The notes beneath the pieces were generated by a model, which worked only from the letters and a program-made list of their open reading frames with translations, was not told where the DNA came from and did no database searches. From an uncultured Methanomassiliicoccales archaeon (lineage in GTDB: Archaea; Thermoplasmatota; Thermoplasmata; Methanomassiliicoccales; Methanomethylophilaceae), in the NCBI GenBank assembly GCA_949298875.1, contig CASFYI010000091.1, positions 1 through 37,153 on the forward strand: a stretch of DNA of 37,153 bases, given 5' to 3'. Position numbers and translations under genes: made by a program. This document shows, piece after piece, positions 4,930 through 27,800 of this stretch; within the stretch, counting starts at the first letter, position 1, and every line of letters begins with the position of its first letter.

Positions 4930-4953
4930 AGGAGATACATAGTCACGGGCCAC
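4534..4953 (-). CDS. Winged-helix regulator with an in-frame TAG (possible pyrrolysine) codon
   Basis: Read through one TAG at 4885-4887 (codon 23), this gives 139 residues with a winged-helix look: SERYIADAIMFLS, the TAG, KGRIKESELYRFGSNYSTAS, IGRRLVELGMADTYLE, then a beta wing (KYVTRYYTITPYGKRAAD) and a C-terminal helix. The frame and its GC-rich codon use run unbroken across the TAG. Without readthrough the only ATG left is at 4794, after the recognition helix. A TATA box (4992-5000) supports a start near the GTG at 4953. The gene also ends in TAG. Its last 60 or so bases run antisense into tpt1 with poorer codon use. Alternatives are a decaying pseudogene or a base error (GAG to TAG). Confidence 0.6.
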
Positions 4954-4991
4954 GACGATGTAAGTGTTAGATTGGTTTTATTCAGATTTTC

Positions 4992-5000
4992 ATTTATAAA
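4992..5000 (-). promoter_or_regulatory. TATA box of the winged-helix regulator
   Basis: TTTATAAAT on the minus strand, in a very A/T-rich intergenic stretch. Transcription would start near 4970, about 17 nt before the GTG at 4953. Confidence 0.5.
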
Positions 5001-5037
5001 CTAAGTCTACATTCAATTCTAAATAGGATATTCAATT

Positions 5038-5045
5038 CTTATAGT
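5038..5045 (+). promoter_or_regulatory. Candidate TATA box of the eight-gene cassette
   Basis: CTTATAGT lies about 32 nt before the ATG at 5074, in the A/T-rich divergent region shared with the winged-helix regulator. No other convincing promoter is visible downstream until the end of the cassette at 14531, so this is the likely promoter of the whole operon. Confidence 0.4.
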
Positions 5046-5073
5046 TTGTAATTGGATATGGTTCTTGATTCGA

Positions 5074-6498
5074 ATGGATGCGCGCCTCAAAGCCATCATG
5101 ACCATGACGGCGATTCTGATAATGTGCGGAGCATTCGTGATGATGAGCGAAGAGGCATGCGCCGAAGAGGGTGCGTCCTCGACCTTGGATTCCAATGCGA
5201 CCACCTATGCCTCTGAGCCGAATATCGACGGAAGAGTCGATTACGGAACATATTCGTCGAAATATGACGCCACTTCCAGCACACTCACGATAACCGTGAC
5301 GGCGAACAACGGTTACTATCTGCCTGACACGGTATCGAACACTTCTGGCAAATGGAATCCGAACTCAAGCAGAACATCGGGAACACTGGTCTTCACGGGT
5401 GTAAGCCCCGAACAAACAGTCAGTTTCAGGATAACATGCGACAGACCCGAGTTTTCGGTGAACGTCGACCACGGAACTTACTCCACATCGTATTCCGCCA
5501 GCAGCGATACATACACCATAACAATCCGCGCCAGCTCTGGATACGTTGTCCCCGAGAGCGTCACCGTGTCCTCCTACACATCCAGCTGGGACCCCAACGG
5601 CTCCAGGAGCTCTGGAACTCTGGTCATCTACAACGTTGAATACGACGACAGCGGCAGGGTCAACGTCGACTGCATCAAGGTTGTGCCCGTGACCGTGAGC
5701 GTCACCACTGGCAAGACGACGACCTCAGTCAGCCTCGGCAACGCCATCCCCGGCGAGACCTTCTACGGGAACCTCCCGAAAAAGACCGGTTACGACTACC
5801 CTTCGAGCATCTCGATCAAAGCGGGCAACTCCACCGTCAGCTCCAGCAGGTACAGCTACAACAGCAGCAGCGGATCCTTCAGCATCCAGTCGTCGGCGTT
5901 CTCCAGCAGCACGTCGTCGATAACGGTCACCGCCAACTACGAGGCCGAGAGATACAGTGTCTCTGCCGAGATCCAGCGCGGAGACGTATCATACTCCGGT
6001 TCGCCCGCTTACGAGCAGTCGTTCACCATCCAGATCGTCCCCGACGACGGGTACGCCTATCCGGACAGCGTCAGGGTCACCAACGGGACCGCATCCACCG
6101 GTTGGACCTACGACCCGGACACCGGGATCGTGACCATATCCAGCGTCAAGGGGGCCATCAAGATCACCGGGACATGCGACGCCGGAACCTTCTCGATCAT
6201 CTACCACGACGGGAACGAGACGCTCAACCTCAGCCCGAGCTGGTACACGTACAACATCAGATGCATCCTCCCCGAGGATGTGGAGAAACCCAGCTTCATC
6301 TTCGTGAAATGGGTCGATTCCGAAGGGAACGAGGTGACGGAGGTTCCCCTCGGCACATTCGGCGAGTTCCATGTCTATGCCAAGTTCGTCGACGACCTCA
6401 GCGACGTGAACGTCGGACTATTCAAGACGCTGTGCTACGTCGGCGCGGTCCTCTCGGCCGTGTGCATCGTGGCCCTCGCCTACGTCTCCAGGAAGTGA
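5074..6498 (+). CDS. Surface protein with beta-sandwich repeats and a C-terminal anchor
   Basis: A 474-residue secreted protein. Residues 1-30 form a signal peptide ending near EEACAEEG. Four related Ser/Thr/Tyr-rich beta repeats of about 75-90 residues follow. The first two share the pattern (V/N)DxGTYSxxYxAxSxTxTIT, then SGxxxPxxV, then a GTLV strand. An InlB/Flg_new-like segment comes next (FVKWVDSEGNEV...VYAKFVDD), then a C-terminal membrane helix of about 20 residues and SRK. The protein should face outside. The predicted start is ATG 5074, since the longer frame begins at TTG. It is the first gene of the cassette, with a gap of 5 nt to the next gene. I recognise no specific family; adhesin or signal sensor are both possible. 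Confidence 0.8.
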   Translation: MDARLKAIMTMTAILIMCGAFVMMSEEACAEEGASSTLDSNATTYASEPNIDGRVDYGTYSSKYDATSSTLTITVTANNGYYLPDTVSNTSGKWNPNSSRTSGTLVFTGVSPEQTVSFRITCDRPEFSVNVDHGTYSTSYSASSDTYTITIRASSGYVVPESVTVSSYTSSWDPNGSRSSGTLVIYNVEYDDSGRVNVDCIKVVPVTVSVTTGKTTTSVSLGNAIPGETFYGNLPKKTGYDYPSSISIKAGNSTVSSSRYSYNSSSGSFSIQSSAFSSSTSSITVTANYEAERYSVSAEIQRGDVSYSGSPAYEQSFTIQIVPDDGYAYPDSVRVTNGTASTGWTYDPDTGIVTISSVKGAIKITGTCDAGTFSIIYHDGNETLNLSPSWYTYNIRCILPEDVEKPSFIFVKWVDSEGNEVTEVPLGTFGEFHVYAKFVDDLSDVNVGLFKTLCYVGAVLSAVCIVALAYVSRK

Positions 6499-6503
6499 TA
6501 TGC

Positions 6504-7184
6504 ATGGATCCAAAGAAATGTGAGACGTTCCAATCGGCCTCCGGAGTCCTCATGCTCGGAGGGCTCCTGATACTAGCTATGGTCTACTTTGGCATCATGC
6601 AGACCGCCAAATTGGACACGAATGTTGCGGTCTGTGCCCTGCTTGCACTCGGAGGGCCCATCTTCGCATCCATAATCTGCAAAATCGCTCTCCGCAATGA
6701 CCAGTCCAGCGAGAACGACAGATATTACAAGATCTGGCGCATCGATACCCTGGTCTACCTCTACATGATGCTGATGGCCTGCATCAGCTTCTCGATGTTC
6801 ATCGACACAGGGTATGCGACATCATCAAGAGAGACATTCTGGCGGACGATAGCGATTGTCATCATACTGCTGATAATCTGGCTGCCGTTCCTCGTGATCA
6901 ACTGCATCTGCTTCCTCTTCGCGGTCCGTGAACACAACAGGACCTCCGCGGTCAGATCGAATGATTTCTACAAGGGCCTCCAGGTCATCCTTCTGCAGAT
7001 CGACGAGATGAACGGCGTCGTCGCTCCGAAAGAGAAGGGCGCTAAGACGAAATTCGGCAAGAAAGGCAGCAAGAAGGAGAACGACGGGACCCTGCCGATC
7101 GACGAAATGAACATCGGTGTCGCACCGCAGGAAGAGAAGCCCAAGAAGAAGTTCGGAAGGAAGGACAAGAAGGGAGGTGAGTGA
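6504..7184 (+). CDS. Four-helix membrane protein with a duplicated basic tail
   Basis: A 226-residue protein that I do not recognise. Four hydrophobic segments lie near residues 14-34, 40-62, 81-100 and 114-140. A cytoplasmic tail follows with two copies of one unit: residues 165-191 (IDEMNGVVAPKE, then a Lys-rich KFGKKGSKK end) and 198-223 (IDEMNIGVAPQE, then KKKFGRKDKK). The tail looks like a docking or phospho-acceptor segment. Its last unit shares an 18-bp DNA repeat with the start of the next gene, the kinase. The gene is 5 nt after the surface-protein gene and is followed by a GGAGGTGA ribosome site for the kinase. A role as membrane anchor for the cassette is inferred. Confidence 0.75.
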   Translation: MDPKKCETFQSASGVLMLGGLLILAMVYFGIMQTAKLDTNVAVCALLALGGPIFASIICKIALRNDQSSENDRYYKIWRIDTLVYLYMMLMACISFSMFIDTGYATSSRETFWRTIAIVIILLIIWLPFLVINCICFLFAVREHNRTSAVRSNDFYKGLQVILLQIDEMNGVVAPKEKGAKTKFGKKGSKKENDGTLPIDEMNIGVAPQEEKPKKKFGRKDKKGGE

Positions 7185-7242
7185 GATGGTCAGAATTAAG
7201 AAGGACACTTCGGAAGAATCGACCGAAGAGAAGCCCAAGAAG
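7131..7242 (+). repeat. 18-bp direct repeat joining two genes of the cassette
   Basis: GAAGAGAAGCCCAAGAAG occurs at 7131-7148, near the end of the four-helix membrane protein gene, and again at 7225-7242, near the start of the kinase gene. Both copies encode EEKPKK in frame, each followed by a Phe-containing basic stretch (KFGRK and GFSIKR). The shared tail motif is therefore a real sequence duplication across a gene border. Confidence 0.7.
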
Positions 7243-10200
7243 GGATTCAGCATAAAGAGGGTCGAGAAGAGCGACCATGTAGCCTCCAACAGGGCGAAGA
7301 ACCACGGGGAGACGACCGGAGCAACAGACCCTGATGACATGGCAAAGAAGAGGGGATTCAGCAGATCTGCGAACAGCCGTGACGATCAGCCCGAACATCA
7401 GACTGGTGGGACGGCCGAGAATGCCTCCGACGGCGGATTGTTCAGAGGAAAGAAGAACAGCGATGACACACCTCGTGTTGCCAAGAACACACAGAAATCT
7501 GTGATGGGACGTCAGAAGAAAGAGGTCAGCCAGGAGGACCTGACTAAGCGTAAGGTAGATGATATCTGCAGCAACATCAACAGGGTATTCAATAACGTCC
7601 AAGCTGGGATCATCTCCAACGAGGACTACATCAAAGTAGTCGAGTTCCTGCTGAAGTACGACCGTTTCGACACTGTGGTCATGGCTACGGAGCATGTCGG
7701 CTCCGGCAAATACTCCCTGAGGTCCAGACTCATCGCCCAGAAGACGGGGGAACTGCTCGCCGCCAACGACCTGAGGACCCTTTACGACCTCTACGGCCAT
7801 GAAGTACTCTCCGATTCCATCATCGACAACAGATGCGACCTCGGAGAATATCTGGACAGTTACATACAGCGCAACGCCAAGGCCATCGAAGCCGTCCCGA
7901 AGGCCGTCGATGATCTGAAGCGCGCATTCCCATCCGCATCCTACTATCCCAGGATGATAGACGAGAGCTCCGTGAGAGTGTCCGCGAACTACGCGAACGA
8001 GGACATCATCGGATGCGACAGCTTCGGCGACCTGGATGCCCAGTACAACAGATACAAGCAGAGACTGGAGATCATACTGGATTCTGATGTGTTCAAGCAG
8101 GCCTACACCAACAAGTTCAGGACCATCGTGTCTGACATCGATAGGATCGAGGACCTGAAACCCATCCTGCTGACCCTCGACACCAACATGAATCCGTTCC
8201 TGGAGCCGTCGGGTCAGATACTGGCGGACAGGATGGATGAGCTGACCCGCCATTACATGACGACCCCGAGGCGCATGGATGAGCTAAACGTCCAGTTCAA
8301 CCGCGCCAACACCGACGTCAGGGACAGGGTCTCGGAATCGTACTTCGAGAGTGTCGTCAAGATACTCTCCGATAGAACCCACAGCGTGGAGGAGCTGTCC
8401 GAGGACTACAGGGCCGTCAACTGGGGATACATGCACGTCGATGGCAGGGAGAGCATCGTCGTCGATGCCTACTGCAAGAATGTCATCGCCTGGCTCCTGC
8501 GCATGAATACGAGCAACATACCTGTCCTCAAATCCTCGGTGCCCAGAGATGACGGACGCGTCTCCAAACGTCTGGCCGAACTCCTGATCGGCCCTGTCGC
8601 AAGTGATGAGGTGCCATTCGACAGCCTCTACGCCTGGCTGGAGTACTTCCAGAACGTCACCGACAAGAGCAACGAGGTGAGCCTCGTCGATTCCAAGATC
8701 TGCCTCCAGATCGGAAAGGGACTGATCCAGAACAATCCGGAAGAGGCCCTGGCATACTTCGAGATGGCGGTCCACGAGGACCTGGGCGGACTGGAGGTCT
8801 ACGCCATCCTCATCAAGGCGCAGAAGAGCCTCGACGACGGCAACACCGGAATGGCGCTGAAGTACGCCCATGATGCGATCCTCAACAACCCGAGGATGAC
8901 CTGCGCCGGAAAGGCGTTCACAGCCTACGTATCCAACATCAGCACCCCTGGGGAGCTGTCGTTCTGCGAATCCGTGGATTCGTTCATCGAGGAGATGAAC
9001 AACCTAGACCAGATCATCAGCGCCACCGCACTGGACTACATAGCGATGACCTACTGCGCGGGCAACCTGTCTCGCGTGGACCTCGTGGAGAAGCTCGCCG
9101 ATCTGAAGACCGAGAAGAGCAAGTTCTTCGAGGCGTTCTGCGAGACGATCCGTGGAATAGAGCTCCTGCGCGGAGAGTCGTTCAGCGAGGCCCTGGACGC
9201 CTTCTCGGAATCCATGGACCTTGCCGGCGAAGACGAGCGCTTGACCTATCTCAACAGGATGGGTTACTCGGCGTGCCTATGGGCGACCAACTCCGAGATG
9301 ACCGCTGGAAAGCTGAAATCCATATGCGAGGAGACCCAGCGCATGTCCAGCGTCAGAATCGACACCTGGTTGTCCCTGTACATCTCCGGACTGGTGGATG
9401 ACCACCAGATCTCGTGGAACTATGCGGCGGACAAGTACATCAGGGCGATGGACTACGTCTTCGACAAGACGGAACTCAGGATCCTGGCATCCCGCATGTA
9501 CATCAAGATGAACGAGCCGACAGAAGCGAAGAGGATCCTCGAGGGCAACAACGACACCGTGTCGGAAATCATGCGCCTCGAGATCGACTTCCTCGTGGGA
9601 GCCACCGGAACGGCCACCCGTCCCAAGGGCAGCATCGAGAAGCTCTCCCTGGAGACCCCGTACCAGCGCGCCCTTGCGGACCGCCTGCTCGGTATGGCCG
9701 AGGACTACCACAACGTGTGGGGCAAGGCCGCCGACAAGTACGGCGAGGGTCTGAAGGAGCTGGCCGGCTCCAAGAGGCGCCGCGACGTCCTGATGAAGGC
9801 CGACCTGTACCGCAAGCGCGCCAAGGCCCAGTACAAGGTCTCCAGACAGAACCTCGCCAAGGTCAACGAGGACTACGAGGCGGCCATCGAACTCCTCCTC
9901 AACATGGACGACGGGACCAGCGAGTTCAAGCAGATAATGGAGGACATCGAGAAGGAGAAGGCGTCCGTCAACTCCTCGACAGAGGTCGTGGAGGAATCCC
10001 CGAGGGACATGTCCGTCAAGGCTCTGGACTTCGGAGGCATCGACCTCGTCATGAGGGGAGGTCCCATCGGGAAGGGAGGCACGTACAACGTGTACGCCGC
10101 CAGCTCGACCGACGGCAGGAGATATGCTGTCAGGCTCCTGAAGAGAATCGACCCCTATGTCACCGCGACCAACGCCCTCACCAAGTCCGAGGAGTCGAAG

Positions 10201-10839
10201 CTCCAGAACGAGGAGGACATCTGGAAGGAGCTGTCTGACTACTGCCCGGACAAGGTCGTCCAGCTGATAGGCTCCATCAAGATCCGCGATGTGCCAGCCC
10301 AGATCATGGAGTTCGCAGACAAGCAGTACAGCAGGATCGAGAGCTCCCTGTCGATCAGGGAGCGCCAGGAGGTCGTCATCCGCGTCCTGGACTGCCTGGC
10401 ATCGATCCACGAGGCGGGCTTCGTCCATAACGACATCAAGCCCGACAACATCATGCAGGTCGGAGGGGTCTGGAAGATCGCCGACTTCGACACCGCCTTC
10501 GAGGAGGGCGAATCCACGCACAACCCCGGCGGCACGTTCCAGTACGAGTCCCCCGAGCAGTTCGGCGGAGGAGAGATCACATCCAAGAGCGACATCTGGG
10601 CCGTGGGGGTCCTGCTCTGCCACTCGCTGTACATGAGGTATCCGTTCAGCGGAGCCGAGAGCGAGTACAAGAGCAACGTCATGAAGGGCGAGTTCGACAG
10701 GGGCGTCATCAGCCAGACGTACATCCCTCTGCTCGAGCGCGTGTTCTCACTCGACCCCGAGGTCCGCCCCACCGCCGCCGAGTTCGCGGAAGAGCTCAGA
10801 AACATCACAGGTTCCAGAAGAACGGAGGCAGACGAATGA
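7186..10839 (+). CDS. Helical-repeat protein with C-terminal Ser/Thr-kinase domain
   Basis: A 1217-residue protein. Residues 1-110 are basic, disordered and Ser/Thr-rich. Residues 120-930 are alpha-helical, with TPR-like stretches (for example EEALAYFEMAVHEDL and GMALKYAHDAILNNP). Residues 955-1210 form a Hanks-type kinase domain: glycine loop GPIGKGGTYNVY (959 on), HNDIKPDN with Asp1083, Lys1085 and Asn1088, metal Asp1100 in DFD (normally DFG), SPE, and DIWAVG. The usual ATP-anchoring beta-3 lysine is Arg983 (YAVRLLK), so activity may be weak, atypical or absent; Lys986 is close by. A GGAGGTGA ribosome site 5 nt before the ATG fixes the start. It overlaps the SPFH-like gene by ATGA. It may phosphorylate or scaffold cassette partners. 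Confidence 0.9.
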   Translation: MVRIKKDTSEESTEEKPKKGFSIKRVEKSDHVASNRAKNHGETTGATDPDDMAKKRGFSRSANSRDDQPEHQTGGTAENASDGGLFRGKKNSDDTPRVAKNTQKSVMGRQKKEVSQEDLTKRKVDDICSNINRVFNNVQAGIISNEDYIKVVEFLLKYDRFDTVVMATEHVGSGKYSLRSRLIAQKTGELLAANDLRTLYDLYGHEVLSDSIIDNRCDLGEYLDSYIQRNAKAIEAVPKAVDDLKRAFPSASYYPRMIDESSVRVSANYANEDIIGCDSFGDLDAQYNRYKQRLEIILDSDVFKQAYTNKFRTIVSDIDRIEDLKPILLTLDTNMNPFLEPSGQILADRMDELTRHYMTTPRRMDELNVQFNRANTDVRDRVSESYFESVVKILSDRTHSVEELSEDYRAVNWGYMHVDGRESIVVDAYCKNVIAWLLRMNTSNIPVLKSSVPRDDGRVSKRLAELLIGPVASDEVPFDSLYAWLEYFQNVTDKSNEVSLVDSKICLQIGKGLIQNNPEEALAYFEMAVHEDLGGLEVYAILIKAQKSLDDGNTGMALKYAHDAILNNPRMTCAGKAFTAYVSNISTPGELSFCESVDSFIEEMNNLDQIISATALDYIAMTYCAGNLSRVDLVEKLADLKTEKSKFFEAFCETIRGIELLRGESFSEALDAFSESMDLAGEDERLTYLNRMGYSACLWATNSEMTAGKLKSICEETQRMSSVRIDTWLSLYISGLVDDHQISWNYAADKYIRAMDYVFDKTELRILASRMYIKMNEPTEAKRILEGNNDTVSEIMRLEIDFLVGATGTATRPKGSIEKLSLETPYQRALADRLLGMAEDYHNVWGKAADKYGEGLKELAGSKRRRDVLMKADLYRKRAKAQYKVSRQNLAKVNEDYEAAIELLLNMDDGTSEFKQIMEDIEKEKASVNSSTEVVEESPRDMSVKALDFGGIDLVMRGGPIGKGGTYNVYAASSTDGRRYAVRLLKRIDPYVTATNALTKSEESKLQNEEDIWKELSDYCPDKVVQLIGSIKIRDVPAQIMEFADKQYSRIESSLSIRERQEVVIRVLDCLASIHEAGFVHNDIKPDNIMQVGGVWKIADFDTAFEEGESTHNPGGTFQYESPEQFGGGEITSKSDIWAVGVLLCHSLYMRYPFSGAESEYKSNVMKGEFDRGVISQTYIPLLERVFSLDPEVRPTAAEFAEELRNITGSRRTEADE

Positions 10840-12236
10840 TACCGATTAGCGGAAGGACCGATGTCCTGGTACAGTGGTTCTCCGACGATTTCATCAAGAA
10901 GAACGAGAAGGTGTTCGAGAAGATCACCGTCGGACCCGGCGAGGTCCTGATCATCATCAAGGACGGGAAACCCTCGGACACGTACCTCGAGTCCTCGGTC
11001 AAGCTGGCCGGGGACGGGTTCCTCGCCAAGTTCCGCGAGAAGCTGAAGGGCGTGAACAACCAGGTCCTCATGGCCGACCTCAGGCCCTTCGCCGCCAGGA
11101 TCGGCATCCACGGGTACACCAAGGACAGGACGGAGATCGAGGGGGCCATGAACCTCACCGTCCGCGTCTCCAAGGAGAACATGGTCCGCCTGTCCAGCCT
11201 CTACACCAGGGACCTTCTCTCCGACGAGAAGTGGAAGGACATGCGCGGCAAGGTCAAGGAGGTGACCCGCGAGGACATCGAGAACATCCTCCGCTACGAC
11301 ACCGAGCTGACCGTCGACTCGTCCGTCCTCACCCAGACCCTCTCCTCCGACATCAGGGACCACCAGGACGTCTTCAACGCCCGCGTCAGGAACGCCATCG
11401 ACTCGATGACCCCCGTCTGGGCCAACTGCGGCCTCGCCGTGGACGTCGTCAAGGTGGACATCGAGAAGAACGCCTACGAGGACGCGATGCGCTACCACGA
11501 CGAGCAGTCCAAGGCCCAAATGAAGATGGACGCCGACTTCGAGACCGCGGCCCACGAGCTGGGCCTCAAGATGGACTACGGCATCCTCTTCGTCAAGAAG
11601 GAAGCCGAGGAGGAGCTCGAGAAGGCGAAGGGCGAGTACGAGGTCCAGAACTTCTGGTTCACCAAGGAGATGGAGGACGAGCTGGCCAAGACCGACCACG
11701 AGATCGAGCTGCAGCGCCGCGACATCATCTCCAAGCTGGAGTTCGCCAAGGTCCAGGCCGACATCGATCACATCAACAGTGTCAGCGACGACGAGATCCG
11801 GCGCAGGAAGGCCGACACCGACGCCTACGTCGAGATGGCCCAGATCAAGAACAACGAGTACGTGAAGGACCAGGACGTCCGCAGGCAGATCGAGCTCATG
11901 CAGGCCCAGAGGGACATCGAGATCCAGAACGCCTACGAGGACGGCAGGAAGAACGGCAAGCAGCTCGCCGAGGACAGCGCCTTCGACATGGGATACAGCA
12001 AGGGATACGCCGACGGGCTCAAGGAGGCCATGAGGAACGGCCCCGGACAGACCGTCGTCATGCCCGGGTACGGGATGCCCCCCGCCTACGGCTACCCTCC
12101 GGCCCCTCCGTACCAGGGAGGATATGACGACCGTCGCCGGTACGACGACTATGACGACCGCAGGTACAGGGACGATGACAGGCGCTACCGCGACGACGAC
12201 CGTCGCCAGCCGAGGCGCGACGACGACAGGGAGTGA
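10836..12236 (+). CDS. SPFH/band-7-like coiled-coil protein
   Basis: A 466-residue protein. The N-terminal region (about 20-210) has the SPFH/band-7 layout: a VGPGEVLIIIKDGK strand pair, an IGIHGYTKDRTEIEGAMNL strand region, then a helix leading to LAVDVVKVDIEKN. A long charged coiled coil rich in Glu, Lys, Asp and Gln covers about 215-385, and AFDMGYSKGYADGLKEA follows. The tail is Pro/Gly/Tyr and then Arg/Asp/Tyr low complexity. Proteins of this type form oligomeric scaffolds at membranes. No N-terminal membrane helix is visible, so the 60-residue membrane peptide next door may tether it. It overlaps the kinase stop by ATGA and lies 5 nt before that peptide gene. Confidence 0.72.
   Translation: MIPISGRTDVLVQWFSDDFIKKNEKVFEKITVGPGEVLIIIKDGKPSDTYLESSVKLAGDGFLAKFREKLKGVNNQVLMADLRPFAARIGIHGYTKDRTEIEGAMNLTVRVSKENMVRLSSLYTRDLLSDEKWKDMRGKVKEVTREDIENILRYDTELTVDSSVLTQTLSSDIRDHQDVFNARVRNAIDSMTPVWANCGLAVDVVKVDIEKNAYEDAMRYHDEQSKAQMKMDADFETAAHELGLKMDYGILFVKKEAEEELEKAKGEYEVQNFWFTKEMEDELAKTDHEIELQRRDIISKLEFAKVQADIDHINSVSDDEIRRRKADTDAYVEMAQIKNNEYVKDQDVRRQIELMQAQRDIEIQNAYEDGRKNGKQLAEDSAFDMGYSKGYADGLKEAMRNGPGQTVVMPGYGMPPAYGYPPAPPYQGGYDDRRRYDDYDDRRYRDDDRRYRDDDRRQPRRDDDRE
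12121..12233 (+). repeat. Arg/Asp/Tyr low-complexity repeat in the SPFH-like protein
   Basis: The last 38 or so residues of the SPFH-like protein repeat short units such as YDDRR, RYRDDDR and RYRDDDRR, encoded by near-identical tandem DNA. The alternating charges and tyrosines resemble segments that drive weak multivalent contacts. Unit number could vary between strains by slippage. Confidence 0.7.
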
Positions 12237-12241
12237 GCAGC

Positions 12242-12424
12242 ATGGACACGATAGTCATAGCCGCCGGGATCTGCGTGGTCGCGGCGATAGCCGTGATCGC
12301 CGCCGCCCTCTACCTCAGGCGCCCCAAACAGGAGCCGGAGGACGAGGGCAGGAAGGTCACCGAGGACCATGTGATCGCCAAGATGGACACCATACTGAGG
12401 TATCAGAATGCCGACAGACCGTGA
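12242..12424 (+). CDS. 60-residue single-span membrane protein
   Basis: A short protein: one hydrophobic helix at residues 3-25 (IVIAAGICVVAAIAVIAAAL), stopped by YLRR, then a charged tail of about 32 residues (KQEPEDEGRKVTEDHV and on). The positive residues just after the helix predict a short outside N-terminus and a cytoplasmic tail. No family is recognised. Its 3' end overlaps the next gene by 17 bp and its start is 5 nt after the SPFH-like gene, so it belongs to the same transcript. It may anchor the SPFH-like scaffold or the kinase. Confidence 0.7.
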   Translation: MDTIVIAAGICVVAAIAVIAAALYLRRPKQEPEDEGRKVTEDHVIAKMDTILRYQNADRP

Positions 12425-13097
12425 GACCCGCGACACGCTCAGGGAGACCGACTCCTGCCTCGACAAGATCATCTCCACGATGTACGAGCACCCCTCCTAC
12501 TACGAGGGGGTCATCTCCACCATCCGCGAGGCGCGCAAGTTCGTCCGCGACAAGCCCGCCAAGGCCCTGGAGCTCACCAAGACCGCCCTGGCGGACTGCG
12601 AGGCCGAGGCGGCCGTCGCCATGGAGTACCACAGGATCGTGGACGGCATCGCCCCCGACGACCCCATCTTCAACGAGGACAAGGTCAGGTCCAGAATGGA
12701 CGAGTACCGCACCGACCTCCGCAAGGGGGACGTCAAGGGCGTCGTCAAGACCATCGAGCATCTGAGGAAGGCCATCGGCGGACGCGGCAGGCCGCCGGCA
12801 ATCCAGGTGCGTCTCGAATCGGACAGGATCAGCCGCGAGGACAAGACGGCCAGGCTCATCATCTCCAACGTCGACACCGCCGACGTCATCCTGAACTCGG
12901 TGTACGTGTCCGCCAACGTGTGGTCCGAGGATGTGCTGCTCACGGTGCCGGTCATCCGCGCTGGGAACTCCGCCGACGTGCCGATAACCATCGGCTCGGA
13001 GGCCCTGGAGTCCCCGGTGATCCATGTCCGCATAACGTACACGCGCGACCTGGTGCCGGTCAACCAGACCTACTCCTTCAAGATCTTCGTGGAATGA
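12408..13097 (+). CDS. Helical plus beta-sandwich protein of the kinase/PP2C cassette
   Basis: A 229-residue protein with no membrane segment. Residues 5-125 are helical, rich in Glu, Lys and Ala (KPAKALELTKTALADCEAEA, DVKGVVKTIEHLRKAI), like a small TPR-type bundle. Residues 130-229 form a beta-sandwich resembling CARDB or Ig-like domains (AIQVRLESDRI, ARLIISNVDTADVILNSVYV, VPITIGSEALESPVIHVRIT). No signal peptide is present, so it should be cytoplasmic, where such a domain could be an adaptor. The start ATG at 12408 lies inside the upstream gene, and the zinc-ribbon gene follows after 4 nt. No specific family is recognised. Confidence 0.75.
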   Translation: MPTDRETRDTLRETDSCLDKIISTMYEHPSYYEGVISTIREARKFVRDKPAKALELTKTALADCEAEAAVAMEYHRIVDGIAPDDPIFNEDKVRSRMDEYRTDLRKGDVKGVVKTIEHLRKAIGGRGRPPAIQVRLESDRISREDKTARLIISNVDTADVILNSVYVSANVWSEDVLLTVPVIRAGNSADVPITIGSEALESPVIHVRITYTRDLVPVNQTYSFKIFVE

Positions 13098-13101
13098 GAA
13101 C

Positions 13102-13839
13102 ATGGGCTGCTGGAAATGCTCCTGCGGACACTACGTCGACACGGAATATCGGAAGTGCATATTCTGCAACCGTCCGAAGCCGGGAACGGTGAAGCAGGGG
13201 GACATCGAATACACAGTCACGTTCCTCTACATGCAGAGGAACAAACCGTGCCTCAACTCGCTGGTGGCCAAGGGCCCGGTCAACATATCGACCGGCGCCG
13301 ACCACCAGCGCCTAAACGTGACGAACATCGTATCGTCGGGGGCCGCCACGGAGTTCCTCTCCTTCGACTGGGAGAACTCCATCCCCCACGGCAACCCCCT
13401 CCAGATATGGCCGGTCGCCGAGGGAGGGTTCGAGATCACCTGCCTCAGCCCCTCGTTCACGGCCAACGGCATGGAGATCGGATCGGGCAAGGTACGCGTC
13501 GAATCCGGATCGATCCTGATGCTCTCGTCAGCCATGGCGATCAAGGTGGAGGACTTCCGCGGGACCGCGTTCATCGAGGGGAGCCTCTCCCCCGTGGGAG
13601 CCAGGAACGGGAACCTGAAGGACTCGGACCTGTACTTCCCGCCGGGATCGGACATCGGATTCCTGAACGGGCTCAACTACCTCGCCCGCACCAGGTACGT
13701 CAACGGCGGGGCGGTGGAGTCCAAGCCCAAGGACGAGACCGACTGGGGGTACGTGAACAAGGCCATCCTGTCGATGTTCGGCATCAAGTTCAGGAACTAC
13801 AGGGAGACGATAGCCGCCCTGGAGGAGGGTAGGACATGA
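13102..13839 (+). CDS. Zinc-ribbon protein with an FHA-like beta segment
   Basis: A 245-residue cytoplasmic protein. The N-terminus has a zinc-ribbon pattern: Cys3, Cys6, Cys8, then Cys19 and Cys22 (CWKCSC...CIFC). Strand-rich sequence covers residues 35-160. The part reading SPSFTANGMEIGSGKVRVES, followed by GSILMLSSAMAIKV, resembles the second half of an FHA phosphothreonine-binding domain (NG-x-I, then a G-x-x-I-x-L turn). The classic FHA Arg and Ser cannot be placed with confidence, so FHA-like is an inference. It lies 4 nt after the beta-sandwich gene and overlaps the PP2C start by ATGA. Together with a kinase and PP2C, a phosphopeptide reader would make sense. Confidence 0.65.
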   Translation: MGCWKCSCGHYVDTEYRKCIFCNRPKPGTVKQGDIEYTVTFLYMQRNKPCLNSLVAKGPVNISTGADHQRLNVTNIVSSGAATEFLSFDWENSIPHGNPLQIWPVAEGGFEITCLSPSFTANGMEIGSGKVRVESGSILMLSSAMAIKVEDFRGTAFIEGSLSPVGARNGNLKDSDLYFPPGSDIGFLNGLNYLARTRYVNGGAVESKPKDETDWGYVNKAILSMFGIKFRNYRETIAALEEGRT

Positions 13840-14531
13840 TCGAGTTCTGTTCGCTGAAAGGGGTTCGCGAGACGAACCAGGATGCGCTGGCGGTCATCAC
13901 CGCCGCCGGAGGCACCATGGACGTCAGGATGATCCACCATGACGGCCGCGACGACTACACCGACAGCACCGACATGCCGGACGGCATGGAGATACTGCTC
14001 GTGGCGGACGGCATGGGCGGGCTCGAGAACGGGGACCAGGCCAGCTTCCTCACGCTGAACTTCTTCCTGGAGAGCGTCCAGTCCGGGTTCAGGGAGCGCA
14101 TCGACATGACCGACGAGATCCGGAGGATCGTGCAGAGGACCTCCGACGACGTCAGAGACAACTGCCCCGGATCCGGGTCCACCCTCGTCGGGATGCTCAC
14201 CCACGGACGGATGTCCTGGATCTTCAGCGTGGGCGACAGCAAGTGCATCGCCAAGACGAGTGCAGGCGCCGTCCGCTCCGAGAACCACTCCCTCGGCGAC
14301 GGCGGGATCATCACCGCCTACATCGGCATGGAGGGCGATGTCCCCGTGAACGTCGTCCCCGTGGTCGACTGCGGCAACGCCATCCTGTTCTCCGACGGCC
14401 TCAACCCCGTGTTCGAGGAGAGGGGGACGGACATCGCGGATTCGAACGAATCCGCCGAGTTCCTCTGCAGGCTGGCCGTCCAGAAGGGATCGACCGACAA
14501 CGTCACCTGCATCATACGCAGGGACATCTGA
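13836..14531 (+). CDS. PP2C-family Ser/Thr phosphatase
   Basis: A 231-residue PPM/PP2C phosphatase, which removes phosphate from Ser/Thr using two metal ions. All main motifs are visible: VRETNQD (Arg11, Asp16), LLVADGMGG (Asp58), GSTLVGML, a VGDSK strand, FSDGL (Asp187), and GSTDNVT (Asp221). The four metal aspartates are present, so it should be active. The length fits a minimal bacterial or archaeal PP2C without a regulatory domain. It is the last gene of the cassette, overlapping the zinc-ribbon gene by ATGA and followed by a hairpin. Its likely substrate is a protein phosphorylated by, or belonging to, the kinase in the same operon. Confidence 0.92.
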   Translation: MIEFCSLKGVRETNQDALAVITAAGGTMDVRMIHHDGRDDYTDSTDMPDGMEILLVADGMGGLENGDQASFLTLNFFLESVQSGFRERIDMTDEIRRIVQRTSDDVRDNCPGSGSTLVGMLTHGRMSWIFSVGDSKCIAKTSAGAVRSENHSLGDGGIITAYIGMEGDVPVNVVPVVDCGNAILFSDGLNPVFEERGTDIADSNESAEFLCRLAVQKGSTDNVTCIIRRDI

Positions 14532-16858: not shown

Positions 16859-17695
16859 GCCCCCTTTGTTTTCCAGAATTCTAAACGTACGATAGTCGAT
16901 GTATGTTATAGCAGCCCTTAGTTCTGTTATGATTTTGGCATTTTCCCCATTCTTTTCAATCATATCGGAATATGCGTTCTGCAACCTGAATCTGTATGAA
17001 CACTCATCAATCAGGCCGATGGAATAGAAATACATCAACGCCTCACAGCGATGGAATGATTTTGGGCGATCGGCCAGAAAATCATCTATGTCTTCAGATG
17101 ACGTCACCTCAGAACATTCTTTGCTCATTTTCTCGACTTTGCAATCAAGCTTTTTGACCATCGCGTATGTGAAATCAGAAATGTTTTTAGGAAGATCGTT
17201 CATCGAGATTCCGAATTTCAGGATGTAATGGAATACTGGAATGTACTTGTCACCCGTACATATCCTACTGTCTGAAGCCCAGGTAATGAATGCTGTCTTT
17301 GACTCAAGCATTCCTGGGCGATCGTATAGGACATCCATCAGAACATCAGATATGTTGTATCCGATGATTCCCTTCATGAGGGATTTAAGAGAGTTCTCAG
17401 TAGAGAACAGTACAGCGAATTCCCCTGGTTTGGCTTTCTCCATCTCACTCTCGTTAATGAATACAAGCCTCTTAGACTGCGGATCTGCAGTAAGGACGAT
17501 ATCACGAATCATACTCCTGTACTTCTTTATCTCTGTTGGAGTGGCCATGGGGGTAAATCTGTCCAGATAGTTGTAGAGGACATCCAGGGATGGGACTGTT
17601 AGGCTCATGATCTCCACCCTCTTGCCTTCGTGTTCGACAACATTAGGATTCCATTTCGTCTTGCCCAATTTGGAATCAACATCGACCCTCACCAT
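16853..17695 (-). CDS. C-terminal fragment of the frameshifted SIR2-like gene
   Basis: A 280-residue frame beginning MVRVDVDSKLGKTKWNP. It is helical in its second half (EALMYFYSIGLIDECSYRFRLQ), and I recognise no catalytic motif. The same frame is open upstream of the ATG and reads DVVTSLKQTDLDKIRNH, which joins smoothly to the end of the SIR2 domain (SDDEINEIIQ) if one base is restored near 17746-17750. The most likely reading is therefore that this is the C-terminal sensor or effector half of one protein of about 575 residues. Separate translation is possible because the ATG overlaps the upstream stop (ATGGTGA). Codon use is A/T-rich, unlike the flanking core genes. Confidence 0.6.
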   Translation of the reverse strand: MVRVDVDSKLGKTKWNPNVVEHEGKRVEIMSLTVPSLDVLYNYLDRFTPMATPTEIKKYRSMIRDIVLTADPQSKRLVFINESEMEKAKPGEFAVLFSTENSLKSLMKGIIGYNISDVLMDVLYDRPGMLESKTAFITWASDSRICTGDKYIPVFHYILKFGISMNDLPKNISDFTYAMVKKLDCKVEKMSKECSEVTSSEDIDDFLADRPKSFHRCEALMYFYSIGLIDECSYRFRLQNAYSDMIEKNGENAKIITELRAAITYIDYRTFRILENKGGA

Positions 17696-18525
17696 GTGGT
17701 TCCTGATCTTGTCCAGATCTGTCTGTTTAAGTGAGGTGACGACATCTGGATGATTTCGTTAATCTCGTCATCGGACATCGAGTATCCAATGAACATGATG
17801 GGGTTGTTACACATCATCGATGTTATCCGGGACATGATGATCTTGGAGTTCGATTTCAGATTATCATAGTCCTCTGATGTTATCACGATTGTATCCGGTC
17901 TCTCCACTGTTCCGTGTATCTTCAGTATATCTCCGTACCCGTCCGAATCACTGAAGTAGTAATCGTCAGGGAACACAAGCACGGAGTATTCTGTGAAGAC
18001 CTCGTGCTCCAGAAATCCATCATAGTTTGTGGTTATTACGGCAGGTATCTTCCTTGACAGTTTCCTGAACATATCCAGTTCGGCGACCAATTCCGGTTTG
18101 TCTGTGATCCCTATACGTGAAACCAGATTACAGACGAGAACTTTGAACGGATCGAGCGTCTCCATCTGCACCCACTCCCCATCGGACAGCTCGGGGAAAT
18201 CCGAACGACTGAGTCTACCAGAAGAAATCTGGTCAATCATCGTTCTGCGAAGTACTGTCGCTAAAGCTGGATTCACATCACAACCTGGATTGTCACTTTC
18301 TATCTTCTTGCGCATACCATTTAGCTGAAAACGATCGATCCCAGTCTTCGCTGCGATACGCTCGAGAAGTTCGTTCCACCCAACAGTATTGCAATATCTT
18401 CTGGTGATTCCGGCCCCTATAAACAATATTGGTACCCGTTTCTCCTTCAGAAGTTTGTCCAAAGGAACGATGCGCTGTTCCAATGGATTATCACCCTTTC
18501 TGCGCGACGCTCTATTGGACGACAT
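17689..18525 (-). CDS. SIR2-like NAD-hydrolase domain protein (N-terminal part, frameshifted)
   Basis: The N-terminal 278 residues carry a SIR2-like Rossmann fold: VPILFIGAGITRRY (NAD-binding loop), WNELLERIA, AVITTNYDGFLE with the conserved TNYD, DILKIHGTVERPDTIVIT with the catalytic-type His, and IMFIGYSMSDDEINEII. SIR2_2-type domains of this kind act as NAD-depleting effectors in several anti-phage systems (Thoeris ThsA, DSR, SIR2-Argonaute). The frame leaves the family pattern after EIIQ and stops 20 residues later. The ATG at 18525 is preferred over a GTG at 18564. The gene diverges from the AlbA-type gene and is A/T-rich, which suggests transfer. Defence function is inferred. Confidence 0.78.
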   Translation of the reverse strand: MSSNRASRRKGDNPLEQRIVPLDKLLKEKRVPILFIGAGITRRYCNTVGWNELLERIAAKTGIDRFQLNGMRKKIESDNPGCDVNPALATVLRRTMIDQISSGRLSRSDFPELSDGEWVQMETLDPFKVLVCNLVSRIGITDKPELVAELDMFRKLSRKIPAVITTNYDGFLEHEVFTEYSVLVFPDDYYFSDSDGYGDILKIHGTVERPDTIVITSEDYDNLKSNSKIIMSRITSMMCNNPIMFIGYSMSDDEINEIIQMSSPHLNRQIWTRSGTTW

Positions 18526-18626
18526 GGTTGGAGGAATGCTATCGAGTAGATAATTCCATGGCACGGATTTCAGTAAATATTCGAATAAGTGCTAAAAGAC
18601 CGATGGAGATATGTTTTCGAAATCGG

Positions 18627-24033: not shown

Positions 24034-24802
24034 TGACCAGGGCCAGCAGGATGATCACGATCACGAGGAGCGCGACCCACATGGTGTAGCTGCTGTCTCC
24101 GATGTAGAAGGTGTACTCCTCACCGAGACCGCTGATGGTGACCATGTTGCCGTCGTCGGCCGGCTGCAGGGAGAAGGTGTAGGCACCCTCCCCGGCGTCG
24201 ATGACCCAGTCGTAGGTGACGGTGGTGGAGCCCTCCTTCGCGAGGTTGAAGGTGGTGTAGCTGTCCTCGATCCTCTCGCCGTTGACGTAGAAGTACACGC
24301 CGTACCCGGTGAGGTCCTGCCCGGACTCGTTGGTCAGGGTGACGCTCAGGGTGATGGGCTCGACGACCTTGATGTCGAAGGTGTCCTCCTTGGCCAGGTC
24401 CTCGGCGGGGATGTCGACGGTCTCCCCCTCGTCGTCGGTGTAGGATGCCTCCACGTCGTAGGTGACGATCAGCTTGTAGCTGCCGGCGGTGTCCGGGGCG
24501 TCGACGGTGAGGGTGGCGGAGCCACCGTTGTCGAGGTCCCCGGAGCTGGGGCTGACGCCGTTGCTGATGGTCTCGCCGGACGAGTCCACGAGCTTCGCAT
24601 CGTAGGAGATGGCCATGGAGAGGTCCTGGTACGAGTCGTAGTCGTGGTTGGTGTAGGTGATCGTGTACTCCGCGTCGTCCCCGGTGCCGATGACCGGGTC
24701 GCCGTCCACGTTGGAGTAGACGGCGTCGGTCTCGGCGATGGGCACGAGGCAGGCGGCGAGGATCGCCGCGAGGGCGATCACAGCGATTGTCTTGATGTTC
24801 AT
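23975..24802 (-). CDS. Secreted beta-sandwich protein with C-terminal membrane anchor
   Basis: A 275-residue protein, not recognised as a defined family. Residues 1-27 are a signal peptide (TIAVIALAAILAACLVPIAE). Two beta-sandwich regions follow, similar to CARDB-type domains: about 30-125 (DAEYTITYTNHDYDSYQDLS...TAGSYKLIVTYDV) and 135-230 (ITLSVTLTNESGQDLTGYGV...GAYTFSLQP). A membrane helix at about 242-264 (VALLVIVIILLALVIIWV) ends in a basic tail, so most of the protein is outside. Its ATG overlaps the stop of the STT3-like gene (ATGA), so the two are made together and probably act together at the cell surface. Many Asn-X-Ser/Thr sites are not obvious. Confidence 0.78.
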   Translation of the reverse strand: MNIKTIAVIALAAILAACLVPIAETDAVYSNVDGDPVIGTGDDAEYTITYTNHDYDSYQDLSMAISYDAKLVDSSGETISNGVSPSSGDLDNGGSATLTVDAPDTAGSYKLIVTYDVEASYTDDEGETVDIPAEDLAKEDTFDIKVVEPITLSVTLTNESGQDLTGYGVYFYVNGERIEDSYTTFNLAKEGSTTVTYDWVIDAGEGAYTFSLQPADDGNMVTISGLGEEYTFYIGDSSYTMWVALLVIVIILLALVIIWVYRKPVKNYGKPKSRR

Positions 24803-27800
24803 CTGCGTGCAAACACCCCCCTCTTGCTGGCGAGCCAGAAGGCAGCGATTATCATGAGGATGATCACAGCGACGAGGAACCAGACTCCCGAGGGGATTCC
24901 GGACCTCTCGTCGATCGCGTCCCCTCCGCTGACACCGGAGTCGTCCACGGTGACGGAGATCTCCTGAGGCTCGAGGGCCTTGGTGCTGCTCGCGTCTCCG
25001 GAGATGGTGACGGTGATTCCCTGCACGGGCGAGGAGGCGACCTTGCCGTCCTCGTCGGGGTCGGCGCCCATCTGCATGAGCGCGACGTAATAGGTGACGG
25101 TCTGGAGTCCGTAGATGGTGACCTCGGCGCCGGCCTCGGCGACGAGGGTTCCGTCGGCGTCCATGACGGTGGCGTACCATCCGGTGGGGGCGGTGAAGCC
25201 GATCTGGACGTTCTTGGCGTAGACGTCCTTGTTGACGAAGGTCACGGCGTACATGTACTGGGATGCGGAGATCCTGTCGTTGGCCGCTCCCTCATCCCCT
25301 GCGTAGAGGATGTCCATGCCCTCGCTGCCGGTGGCAGGGGCGGAGTTCTCGGTGATGGCCTCGGTGACCGTGTTCGTTCCGTTGATGTCGGAGACGATCA
25401 GGTCCACGCCGTCCAGACCGGGCGCGACGGTGGCCGCGTCGTAGTATCCGGTGGCGGTGGACTGCTTGGACTCTCCGGCGGGGACGGTCACGGTGACCCC
25501 CTTGTCGAGGGACCAGGCGGTTCCCGCGGAGACGGCATAGGTCATGTCCGTCTTGCCGTTGTTGGTGACGGTGAACTGGACGGTGGCCCTTCCGTCGACG
25601 AACTCGGCGCTGTCGATGGCGACCTCGAAGGCGGGCTCGTCCTCCTCCTCGGAGTCGTCTGCGGGAGCGTCGGAGCTCAGGACTGAGATGTTCCTGATGC
25701 ATCCGTCCCTCATGTTGATGAGGTCCTCGGTGGCGGTGAACCAGTGCTCGACGGAGGCGACGGTGGCGCTGACCTCGACGGTCGCGGTGACGTCGTTCAT
25801 GTCGGCCGGGAGCCTGAGGGTGAAGGCGCCGTCGGTGACGTCGAACTGCCTCTTGACATCCCCGGACTCGACGGTGATGGTTCCGTCGGCGTTGATTCCG
25901 ACGTATCCGGTGACCTCCATGACGCTCTGGGTGGCCTTCATGTCGAGGGTCACGGCCTCGCGGGAGTCGCCGGTGAGGTCGACGTATCCGTAGGCGATCT
26001 TGACGTCGCTGGCGTCGGAGCGGTTGGTGGAGGTGATGTAGTACTCGTATCCGGTCTCGAGGTAGTATCCTCCGTCGAAGGCGTGGTAGGATCCCTCGGT
26101 CTCGATCGAGATGGCATCGGACTCGTTCTTCTGGATGTTGGCGGTGACGACCTCGACGACGTCCAGTCCGACGAACTCGGTCTGGCCGGGGTAGAGGTAA
26201 ACGGTTCCGCTGAAGTAGTATCCGGTGGCTCCGTCGATGGTGATCTCGTACTCGCCGGGGCAGAGATCCTTGGCGACTCCTGCCTCCATCGTGATGGGCT
26301 CGTCTCCCTCGTAGAAGTCGAGCTCGGCGTCGTAGTCCAGGGTGACGGACTGCTGCTTGACGACGTTCTCCTGGTCCTTGTCGGTGTATCCGACGTACTG
26401 GATGGTCACCGTACCGGCGCTCGTGTTGGACGAGCCGGCGGACACGGACCTGACCATATCGCTGCAGGCGAAGTACTTGTTGCCCTCGCTGTAGGTTCCG
26501 TCGGCGTTGTTGAAGCTGACGGTGGACTCGATGCCGTCGGGGATGTAGTAGTACGCGACACCGCTGGTGTTGGTCATGGAGACGACCTGGTACTCCTTCT
26601 CCTGGTAGGTGTAGGTGATCATTCCCTTGACGAAGGGCAGGTTGACGTTGCCGTCCCCGGTGGCGGAGTCGTACCTGAGGGTGGAGCTGACCCTCCTTCC
26701 GTCGACGGTGGCGAGGTCGCCGAGCTCGGTGCTGGTGCCACTGACGTTGGCGGATCCGAGGTAGACCCTGTCGCCGCTGTTGTAGGCGTTGACGTTGTAG
26801 CTGCCGGTGGGCATGAGGGCGGTGAACGCGCCGTCCTTGTCGGTGGTCGCCTTGACGGTGAATCCGCTCTCGTCGTAGAACATGACGGTTCCGGACTCGC
26901 CGTCCTCCCCGTCCTTGAGCGTTCCGGTGACCTTGGAGTACTGTCCGCTCTGGAGAGCGACGGAGTCTCCTCCGGTGTAGACCGCGTAGTAGACGGTGGT
27001 TCCGCTGACTCCGTAGATGCTGTAGGTCATGTCCTCCGTACCGATGCTGTAGGGCACGTCGAAGGTGCCGTTCTCCACATCGGAGACCGTGCTGAACTCG
27101 CCGGCGTAGACGGCGAGGGCGACGCCCTCGGGGGCGTTGTCGATGCTGACGGTCCTGGACTCGTAGGCGGTCATGGTGACGCTCCTGTTGGAGCTGCTGG
27201 CGTTCTGGACGTTGGAGGTCATGGAGACCAGCCCGTTGCCCAGGGAGACGGTGTACTTGCCGGGGATCACGTTGATCTCGGCCTTTCCGTCCTCGCCGAT
27301 GGCGGTGCTGAACTGAGCGCCGGTGACGGTGTTTGTGGCGATGACCACGGGGGCCTCCTCGTAGGAGGTTCCGTCGATCACGTTGTCGTAGACGTCCTCG
27401 ACCGTCGCGGTGATCTTCTTGGTGGCGGGGGCGATGACGATTCCGGTGGTGTCGCCGGGGTGGATCGTGACGGATCCGGACCCGAGGGAGGTTCCGTCGG
27501 CCCCATAGAGGATGTAGCTGTATGTTCCGGGCAGGACGTTCTCGATCCTGACCTCACCGTTGGTGATCGGGACCTCGACGTCCTCGGGCTCCGCACCTCC
27601 GCTGAGGGTGAGCATCATGTCCTCGGCATCGTAGATCTCGCCGTTGACCTGGACCTCGCCGGTGGCGACGGCGTCCGGGATCTCGGTGACCTGCTGGACG
27701 GCGGAGGATGTGAAGGAGTCGACGAGCACGTCGCCGATGCTGATGTCCACGCGGTAGTCGCCGCTGGGGACGAGCGCGCTGTAGGCGCCGTCGCGGACGG

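What the first reader, a model, noticed from the sequence alone, without database searches (positions are those of the whole stretch)
5074..14531. Undescribed-looking kinase / PP2C / FHA-like / SPFH membrane cassette
Eight genes on one strand with gaps of at most 5 nt or ATGA-type overlaps encode a surface beta-repeat protein, a four-helix membrane protein, a helical-repeat Ser/Thr-kinase protein, an SPFH-like scaffold, a one-helix peptide, an adaptor-like beta-sandwich, a zinc-ribbon/FHA-like protein and a PP2C phosphatase. A phosphatase, a kinase, a possible phosphopeptide reader and a scaffold between surface and cytoplasmic proteins form a logical signalling unit. It recalls the bacterial TerY-P triad and T6SS PpkA/PppA/Fha control modules, but has no vWA, TerD or secretion gene here. 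I know of no described archaeal system with this set.
Basis: partly seen in the sequence, partly recalled or inferred. Interest (0 to 1): 0.78.

Follow-up and report, generated by a model that had tools for sequence, protein, structure and literature searches.

The report
Archaeal SPFH-kinase-phosphatase membrane signalling operon
Eight adjacent genes in a gut methane-producing archaeon look like one membrane-anchored phospho-signalling machine (surface protein, kinase-like protein, phosphatase, FHA-like protein and SPFH scaffold); its scaffold, one-helix peptide and adaptor recur together in other loci of the genus, one of which also carries a defence-type nuclease.

Summary
In detail: eight same-strand genes at 5074-14531, with gaps of at most 5 nt or 4-17 nt overlaps. 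The whole set recurs in the same order in two relatives (G099, G101), with every gene under purifying selection.

Confirmed by tools: PP2C (all catalytic Asp kept), a kinase domain, and an SPFH scaffold (fold search: prohibitin, stomatin, flotillin). Supported, low-confidence model: g7 is a RanBP2-type zinc finger plus FHA fold, the layout of the Sulfolobus regulator ArnA. New cautions: the kinase has Arg for the beta-3 Lys and DFD for DFG; g7 lacks the canonical FHA Arg and Asn. So 'writer' and 'reader' are atypical.

New finding: the ordered trio SPFH - one-helix peptide - helical/Ig adaptor recurs in divergent loci. One (G085:C44) is an operon with two kinases and a PDC-S37/Hhe-like helicase-nuclease. 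In another (G085:C69) the kinase is fused through a membrane helix to surface repeats. A remote relative (G345) puts SPFH beside a TerY-P triad and a double-FHA protein.

Parts are known from TerY-P, the Arn network and archaeal ESCRT loci, but vWA, TerD, ESCRT-III/Vps4 and secretion genes are missing here. Best reading: a surface-to-cytoplasm phospho-scaffold, possibly defence-related. New variant of a known kind.

The parts
4930..5073 (+). AT-rich 144-bp upstream gap after the Tpt1/KptA gene; likely the operon's promoter region
   Evidence: sequence; not tested as a promoter (the promoter tool covers only bacterial sigma-70 sites)
5074..6498 (+). g1: 474-aa surface protein, signal peptide (7-25), InlB/Listeria-Bacteroides-type beta repeats, C-terminal helix (453-471)
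   Evidence: hydropathy; Flg_new E 0.1 here, 1.4e-3 in the G101 orthologue; 82-83% identical in G099
6504..7184 (+). g2: 226-aa protein with four hydrophobic segments and a basic cytoplasmic tail
   Evidence: orthologues only in G099 (78%) and G101 (39%), otherwise one weak hit in 147 genomes
7186..10839 (+). g3: 1217 aa; basic disordered N-terminus, about 900-aa helical solenoid, C-terminal Hanks-type kinase domain with atypical motifs (beta-3 Lys to Arg, HND, DFD)
   Evidence: Pkinase 1.1e-29; motif table; N-terminal part confined to three genomes plus one weak hit
10836..12236 (+). g4: SPFH-domain scaffold with long coiled coil and DR-rich tail; no membrane helix
   Evidence: model mf473db084476, PDB hits prohibitin, stomatin, flotillin, HflK/C, vault, best E 2.6e-8; hydropathy
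12242..12424 (+). g5: 60-aa single-pass microprotein
   Evidence: hydropathy; peptide of the same layout in the same slot in G101, G085:C44, G096:C151
12408..13097 (+). g6: adaptor, N-terminal helices plus C-terminal Ig-like beta domain (no known family)
   Evidence: alignments A4/A11; profile hits in 7 of 147 genomes; no Pfam family
13102..13839 (+). g7: RanBP2-type zinc finger plus FHA-like fold (ArnA-like layout); SIPH kept, canonical Arg and Asn absent
13836..14531 (+). g8: PP2C phosphatase, metal-ligand Asp residues intact
   Evidence: PP2C_2 8e-8, NCBIfam Stp1 8.9e-18, alignment A5

Best explanation
A membrane-tethered phospho-signalling scaffold. Shown: the eight genes are an operon-like unit conserved as a block; SPFH fold; intact PP2C motifs; kinase domain; recurrent ordered core SPFH - one-helix peptide - adaptor; a relative (G085:C69) in which a kinase is fused through a membrane helix to surface beta repeats beside PP2C and SPFH. 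Inferred: SPFH subunits (g4) oligomerise under the membrane, held there by g5 and/or g2. The surface repeat protein g1 with g2 senses the outside (ligand, contact, envelope damage or a virus) and changes the state of the helical-repeat kinase-like protein g3 on the scaffold. The adaptor g6 and ZnF-FHA protein g7 link scaffold to targets, g7 through protein contacts that may not need phosphate. PP2C g8 resets the phosphorylation state. Because g3 has a degenerate catalytic Lys, it may act as a slow kinase or a nucleotide-sensing pseudokinase scaffold.
For: Block conservation and purifying selection. Conservation gradient against G099: cytoplasmic g7/g6/g8/g4 dN/dS 0.03-0.13, surface and membrane g1/g2 0.28-0.39, as expected of variable sensor and fixed core. 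Fusion argument: kinase-TM-InlB/Big surface repeats next to PP2C and SPFH in G085:C69. SPFH has PP2C beside it in 5 of 6 loci and a kinase in 5 of 6, although PP2C occurs in only 17 of 147 genomes. Ordered SPFH-1TM-adaptor trio in G000, G099, G101, G085:C44 and, with a weak SPFH call, G096:C151. SPFH fold. FHA fold hits.
Against: Kinase beta-3 Lys replaced by Arg and DFG by DFD in both type I sequences aligned; g7 lacks canonical FHA Arg/Asn and has no Pfam FHA hit. G096:C151 has the trio and a surface protein but no kinase or PP2C nearby, so phosphorylation is not obligatory. No effector or transcription factor is in the operon, so the output is unknown. No biochemical data.
Confidence: 0.5

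Rival explanations
1. An antiviral or conflict system: the surface/SPFH/adaptor front end detects infection or membrane damage and the kinase-phosphatase pair controls a lethal or restrictive output, the effector being separate or not yet recognised in the window version.
For: G085:C44 operon: kinase, SPFH, 1TM, adaptor, CARDB/TGase-like protein, DUF4011-SF1 helicase-MTES_1575 nuclease (PADLOC PDC-S37 1.6e-154, Hhe 6.7e-84), kinase, all co-directional. g6 relative beside a DO-GTPase in G134. Patchy presence: 5 of 147 genomes. Vicinity has DUF234 ATPase and SIR2_2 genes. TerY-P-like modules can act in defence (PMC11090510).
Against: No effector domain in the eight window genes; PADLOC finds only generic kinase matches there. 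The window version is strongly conserved between two sister genomes, with no toxin-like protein.
Confidence: 0.25
2. An ESCRT-free relative of archaeal ESCRT membrane-sorting loci: SPFH plus Ig adaptor plus STK/STP/FHA organise membrane protein sorting or vesicle formation, phosphorylation selecting the cargo.
For: Same parts list (SPFH-coiled-coil, ZnR, Ig appendage-like proteins, STK, STP, FHA) reported in Meth_adaptin, Main and Halo_FHA ESCRT loci (PMC11188069); divergent SPFH relatives here keep a C-terminal zinc ribbon.
Against: No ESCRT-III (Snf7) or Vps4 domain in the cassette; homology of g6 to adaptin appendage was not shown.
Confidence: 0.12
3. A decaying TerY-P/Arn-type module: the vWA partner was lost and the kinase and FHA protein are losing catalytic and binding residues, leaving a mainly structural surface complex.
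For: Degenerate kinase and FHA motifs; in-frame TAG in the G099 SPFH gene; lone PP2C genes beside icd in G076, G100, G101:C10 look like remnants of related loci.
Against: All genes under purifying selection, g7 the strongest (dN/dS 0.033); PP2C intact; the TAG may be read as pyrrolysine since PylS is encoded.
Confidence: 0.1

Closest known systems
Sulfolobus archaellum regulatory network (ArnA-ArnB-ArnC/D-PP2A)
   Same: Archaeal kinase/phosphatase network; ArnA is RanBP2-type zinc finger plus FHA (PMC6509490), the layout inferred for g7, and the ArnA FHA structure 5a8i is among the fold hits
   Different: ArnB vWA partner absent; phosphatase is PP2A rather than PP2C (PMC7472852); no SPFH or surface protein in the Arn papers consulted; g7 lacks canonical pThr residues
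TerY-P triad (vWA + PP2C + kinase-ZnR)
   Same: PP2C in one operon with a kinase; a remote locus (G345) joins a TerY-P-like triad with SPFH-ZnR and ZnR-double-FHA genes
   Different: No vWA and no kinase-fused zinc ribbon or OB fold in the window; window kinase does not group with the vWA-associated kinases of the family (tree)
Archaeal ESCRT-associated loci (Main, Halo_FHA, Meth_adaptin; PMC11188069)
   Same: STK, STP, FHA, SPFH-coiled-coil and Ig-like adaptor proteins in membrane-linked gene clusters
   Different: ESCRT-III and Vps4 absent from the cassette; no ProX; single soluble SPFH without zinc ribbon in the window version
B. subtilis YdjI / PspA-SPFH envelope-stress network
   Same: YdjI, a Band-7/flotillin-family protein, links partners to membrane proteins (PMC9239133)
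   Different: No PspA family protein here; has kinase and PP2C
PASTA-type receptor kinases (PknB/PstP) and FHA partners
   Same: Surface sensor, kinase, PP2C, FHA logic; G085:C69 kinase is itself a receptor-like kinase-TM-surface repeat protein
   Different: In the window sensor and kinase are separate proteins; no PASTA; atypical kinase motifs
T6SS PpkA/PppA/Fha
   Same: kinase, PP2C, FHA trio (from general knowledge)
   Different: no secretion gene in the cassette

Membership tests
SPFH / Band-7 superfamily (g4) | SPFH fold followed by long helices | tested here: met
   PDB fold hits nearly all SPFH proteins, best E 2.6e-8; Pfam Band_7 0.012 here, 1.5e-4 in the G085 relative
PP2C (g8) | catalytic Asp motifs NQD, DGMGG, SDG, DN | tested here: met
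   invariant in A5; Stp1 model 8.9e-18
Active Hanks-type kinase (g3) | kinase domain profile | tested here: met
   Pkinase 1.1e-29
Active Hanks-type kinase (g3) | beta-3 Lys and DFG | tested here: not met
   Arg and DFD in window and G101; HxD Asp, alpha-C Glu and catalytic Asn kept
FHA domain (g7) | FHA beta-sandwich fold | tested here: inconclusive
   almost all of the top 30 fold hits are FHA, but best E 3e-3 and model pLDDT 46 (core 55-68); no Pfam hit
FHA domain (g7) | pThr-contact residues GR, SxxH, N | tested here: not met
   only SIPH (93-96) present; no GR; the single NG lies at the second, non-contact position by spacing to two true FHA domains (manual reading)
Arn network (ArnA) | RanBP2-type zinc finger before the FHA domain | tested here: inconclusive
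   Cys spacing and weak match to Nup153 RanBP2 fingers E 0.1-0.3
Arn network | vWA partner ArnB | tested here: not met
   no vWA among the eight genes
TerY-P triad | TerY-like vWA gene | tested here: not met
   no vWA in the cassette
TerY-P triad | kinase with C-terminal zinc ribbon or OB fold | tested here: not met
   kinase domain ends the protein
Archaeal ESCRT system | ESCRT-III and Vps4 in the locus | tested here: not met
   none in the eight genes or the flanking genes scanned; rest of genome not searched for them
Archaeal ESCRT system | Ig-like adaptin-appendage adaptor | tested here: inconclusive
T6SS PpkA/PppA/Fha | secretion apparatus genes | tested here: not met
Named anti-phage system (PADLOC) | full model match | tested here: not met
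   only kinase-domain matches to MAD6, PD-T4-6 and similar in the window genes

The most novel reading that the evidence does not exclude
SPFH - single-pass microprotein - helical/Ig adaptor is an undescribed archaeal membrane-sensing core that is plugged into different outputs: kinase/PP2C/FHA signalling in the window, a PDC-S37-like helicase-nuclease in G085:C44, a surface protein alone in G096:C151. It would be an archaeal membrane-surveillance front end for immunity or envelope stress.
Probability: 0.3. Interest if true: 0.8.

Novelty: new variant of a known kind. Interest (0 to 1): 0.58.

Why it matters
Hanks-type kinases and PP2C are uncommon in this order (PP2C in 17 of 147 genomes). 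A compact operon joining surface protein, scaffold, kinase-like protein, phosphatase and an ArnA-like protein makes archaeal transmembrane phospho-signalling testable as one genetic unit, in a gut and rumen methanogen family. The recurrent trio links three literatures (TerY-P, Arn, archaeal ESCRT/SPFH) and one defence-type locus, and gives a new marker (g6) for finding such systems.

Tried and rejected
Weak g7 matches in six genomes: the one examined is a DNA polymerase, a chance local match. Weak C-terminal g4 profile hits outside the genus were not examined and not counted. hhalign of g7 with the G345 FHA domains found nothing (both profiles too thin), so the FHA call rests on the fold search. 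The 437-aa protein of G085:C69 is unrelated to the g3 N-terminus. g1 and the G085 surface repeats are not detectably homologous by BLASTP (0.085), only similar repeat types. Virus and plasmid searches with SPFH or g7 queries were empty; the genome-contig scan returned only the known relatives. The G018 kinase is a long multi-domain signalling protein, unrelated. Two scripts failed because locus files hold several records.
Full report
Observation. The eight ORFs exist at the stated coordinates, all on the + strand, with gaps of +5, +1, -4, +5, -17, +4 and -4 nt. The window is contig C91 of a 1.34-Mb, 80%-complete genome. Its nearest named relatives are MAGs labelled Candidatus Methanomethylophilaceae. 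Left of the cassette lie a Tpt1/KptA gene and a gene that reads as gatD; right lies a convergent DUF234-type ATPase.

Is it a unit? Yes. The same eight genes in the same order occur in G099 (L009) and G101 (L010). The G101 copy has a different right flank (genes that read as QueG-like and thymidine-phosphorylase-like), so the block is not tied to one site. Codon analysis against G099 gives dN/dS of 0.28 (g1), 0.39 (g2), 0.17 (g3), 0.13 (g4), 0.08 (g6), 0.03 (g7) and 0.12 (g8); g5 is identical. Outward-facing parts vary; the cytoplasmic core is held.

Part by part. g4: AlphaFold model pLDDT 60 (most of the SPFH part 70-83); its PDB neighbours are human prohibitin, stomatin, flotillin, HflK/C and vault protein, E from 2.6e-8. 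It has no membrane helix, so it needs a tether; g5 and g2 are the obvious candidates (inference). g8: PP2C with all metal Asp motifs. g3: kinase domain E 1.1e-29, but the beta-3 Lys is Arg and DFG is DFD in window and G101, while alpha-C Glu, HxD Asp and the catalytic Asn remain. From general knowledge, Arg at that Lys is seen in KSR-type pseudokinases, so activity must be shown, not assumed. g7: Cys pattern of a RanBP2 finger (weak Nup153 matches), then a beta-rich region whose fold-search list is almost entirely FHA domains, including ArnA 5a8i, OdhI, GarA, KAPP and Dun1. The model is poor (pLDDT 46) and the E-values modest (3e-3), but such agreement is hard to get by chance. Against two true FHA domains (G345), g7 keeps SxxH but lacks the GR and the contact Asn. 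g1: InlB/Listeria-Bacteroides-type repeats, clearer in the G101 orthologue.

Related loci. A profile of g4 finds further versions in the genus. G085:C69 (L011): kinase-TM-InlB/Big surface repeats in one 1555-aa protein, an unknown 437-aa protein, PP2C on the other strand, SPFH with C-terminal zinc ribbon, then a CARDB/TGase-like protein. G096 (L039 end and L012): PP2C, SPFH-ZnR, a g6-like adaptor and a CARDB/TGase-like protein; the two contigs share a 54-nt overlap, but the end of C140 then diverges into kinase sequence, so the join is probable, not proven. G085:C44 (L040), found through its kinases: seven co-directional genes, kinase - SPFH - one-helix peptide - adaptor - CARDB/TGase-like - DUF4011/SF1 helicase/MTES_1575 nuclease - kinase; the helicase matches PADLOC PDC-S37 (1.6e-154) and Hhe (6.7e-84). 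Its SPFH was recognised by reading and alignment, not by the g4 profile. A g6 profile finds G096:C151 (L082): a weak SPFH-like protein (hhalign E 0.034), a 65-aa one-helix peptide and a g6-like adaptor, then a surface protein, without kinase or PP2C. It also finds g6-like domains in another family of the order; the one examined sits beside a DO-GTPase (G134). SPFH - one-helix peptide - adaptor is therefore the recurrent core; kinase and PP2C usually accompany it.

Wider. Among 350 genomes of the class, the SPFH profile finds one more, G345: DnaK, ZnR-double-FHA, surface PKD protein, SPFH with two zinc ribbons, cyclase/DUF835 protein, vWA, PP2C, kinase. This joins SPFH and FHA genes to a TerY-P-like triad. 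A different vWA/PP2C/kinase/TGase-like system, with a DO-GTPase in one case, also exists in the genus; its kinases form a separate, well-supported clade, and the window and G085/G096 kinases form two others whose mutual relation is unresolved.

Statistics. In 147 genomes of the order, PP2C occurs in 17 and this SPFH family in 5 (6 loci); 5 of 6 SPFH loci have PP2C beside them and 5 of 6 a kinase. With one or two PP2C genes per 1.7 Mb, adjacency by chance would be about 1% per locus (my estimate).

What is known. TerY-P is vWA, PP2C and STK-ZnR, linked to stress and restriction systems (PMC11090510). The Arn network has an FHA/RanBP2-ZnF protein, a vWA protein, kinases and PP2A (PMC6509490, PMC7472852). 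Archaeal ESCRT loci are reported with STK/STP, FHA, SPFH-coiled-coil-ZnR and Ig-like appendage proteins (PMC11188069). The toolbox is therefore known; this combination, without vWA or ESCRT, is not among the systems in the papers I could search.

Mechanism and odds. Best: surface-to-cytoplasm phospho-scaffold (0.5). Rivals: defence front end (0.25), ESCRT-free membrane sorting (0.12), decaying module (0.1). The output is not encoded in the operon and remains the main unknown.

Noticed in passing
L009:11088-11090 (G099 SPFH gene): In-frame TAG where the window has a Trp codon, in an otherwise open SPFH gene; a PylS gene is present in G000, G099 and G101, so this could be a pyrrolysine codon rather than a broken gene.
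   Followed up: partly
L040:2622-13332 (G085:C44): Seven-gene operon joining two Sel1-repeat-like kinases (ends resembling leucine-rich surface repeats), SPFH, one-helix peptide, adaptor, CARDB/TGase-like protein and a PDC-S37/Hhe-like helicase-nuclease: a candidate defence system.
   Followed up: partly
L064:436-15699 (G345:C78): TerY-P-like triad with nucleotide cyclase/DUF835 protein, SPFH with double zinc ribbon, ZnR-double-FHA protein and DnaK.
   Followed up: partly
L039:3513-9650 and L046:4832-11072: A separate vWA / PP2C-fusion / kinase / transglutaminase-like system in the same genus (with a DO-GTPase2 gene in L039), without SPFH.
   Followed up: partly
L042:7191-8042, L043:6124-6924, L045:848-1630: Lone PP2C genes beside isocitrate dehydrogenase in G076, G101 and G100, related to the SPFH-linked PP2C found near icd in G096; possible remnants or the ancestral neighbour.
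   Followed up: partly
L039:15180-15337: End of G096 contig C140 joins the SPFH N-terminus to kinase alpha-C sequence that continues in contig C80: assembly chimera or a real deletion variant.
   Followed up: partly
window g2 C-terminal tail and g3 N-terminus (about 7020-7480): Basic disordered tails of g2 and g3 share short FGKK/FGxK-like motifs in window and G101; possible common docking or phosphorylation sites (sequence only).
   Followed up: no
window 17689-18564: SIR2_2-domain gene near the DUF234 ATPase right of the cassette.
   Followed up: no
window 24799-30417: 1872-aa protein with an N-terminal STT3 oligosaccharyltransferase match and carboxypeptidase-regulatory-like repeats, an unusual fusion.
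   Followed up: no
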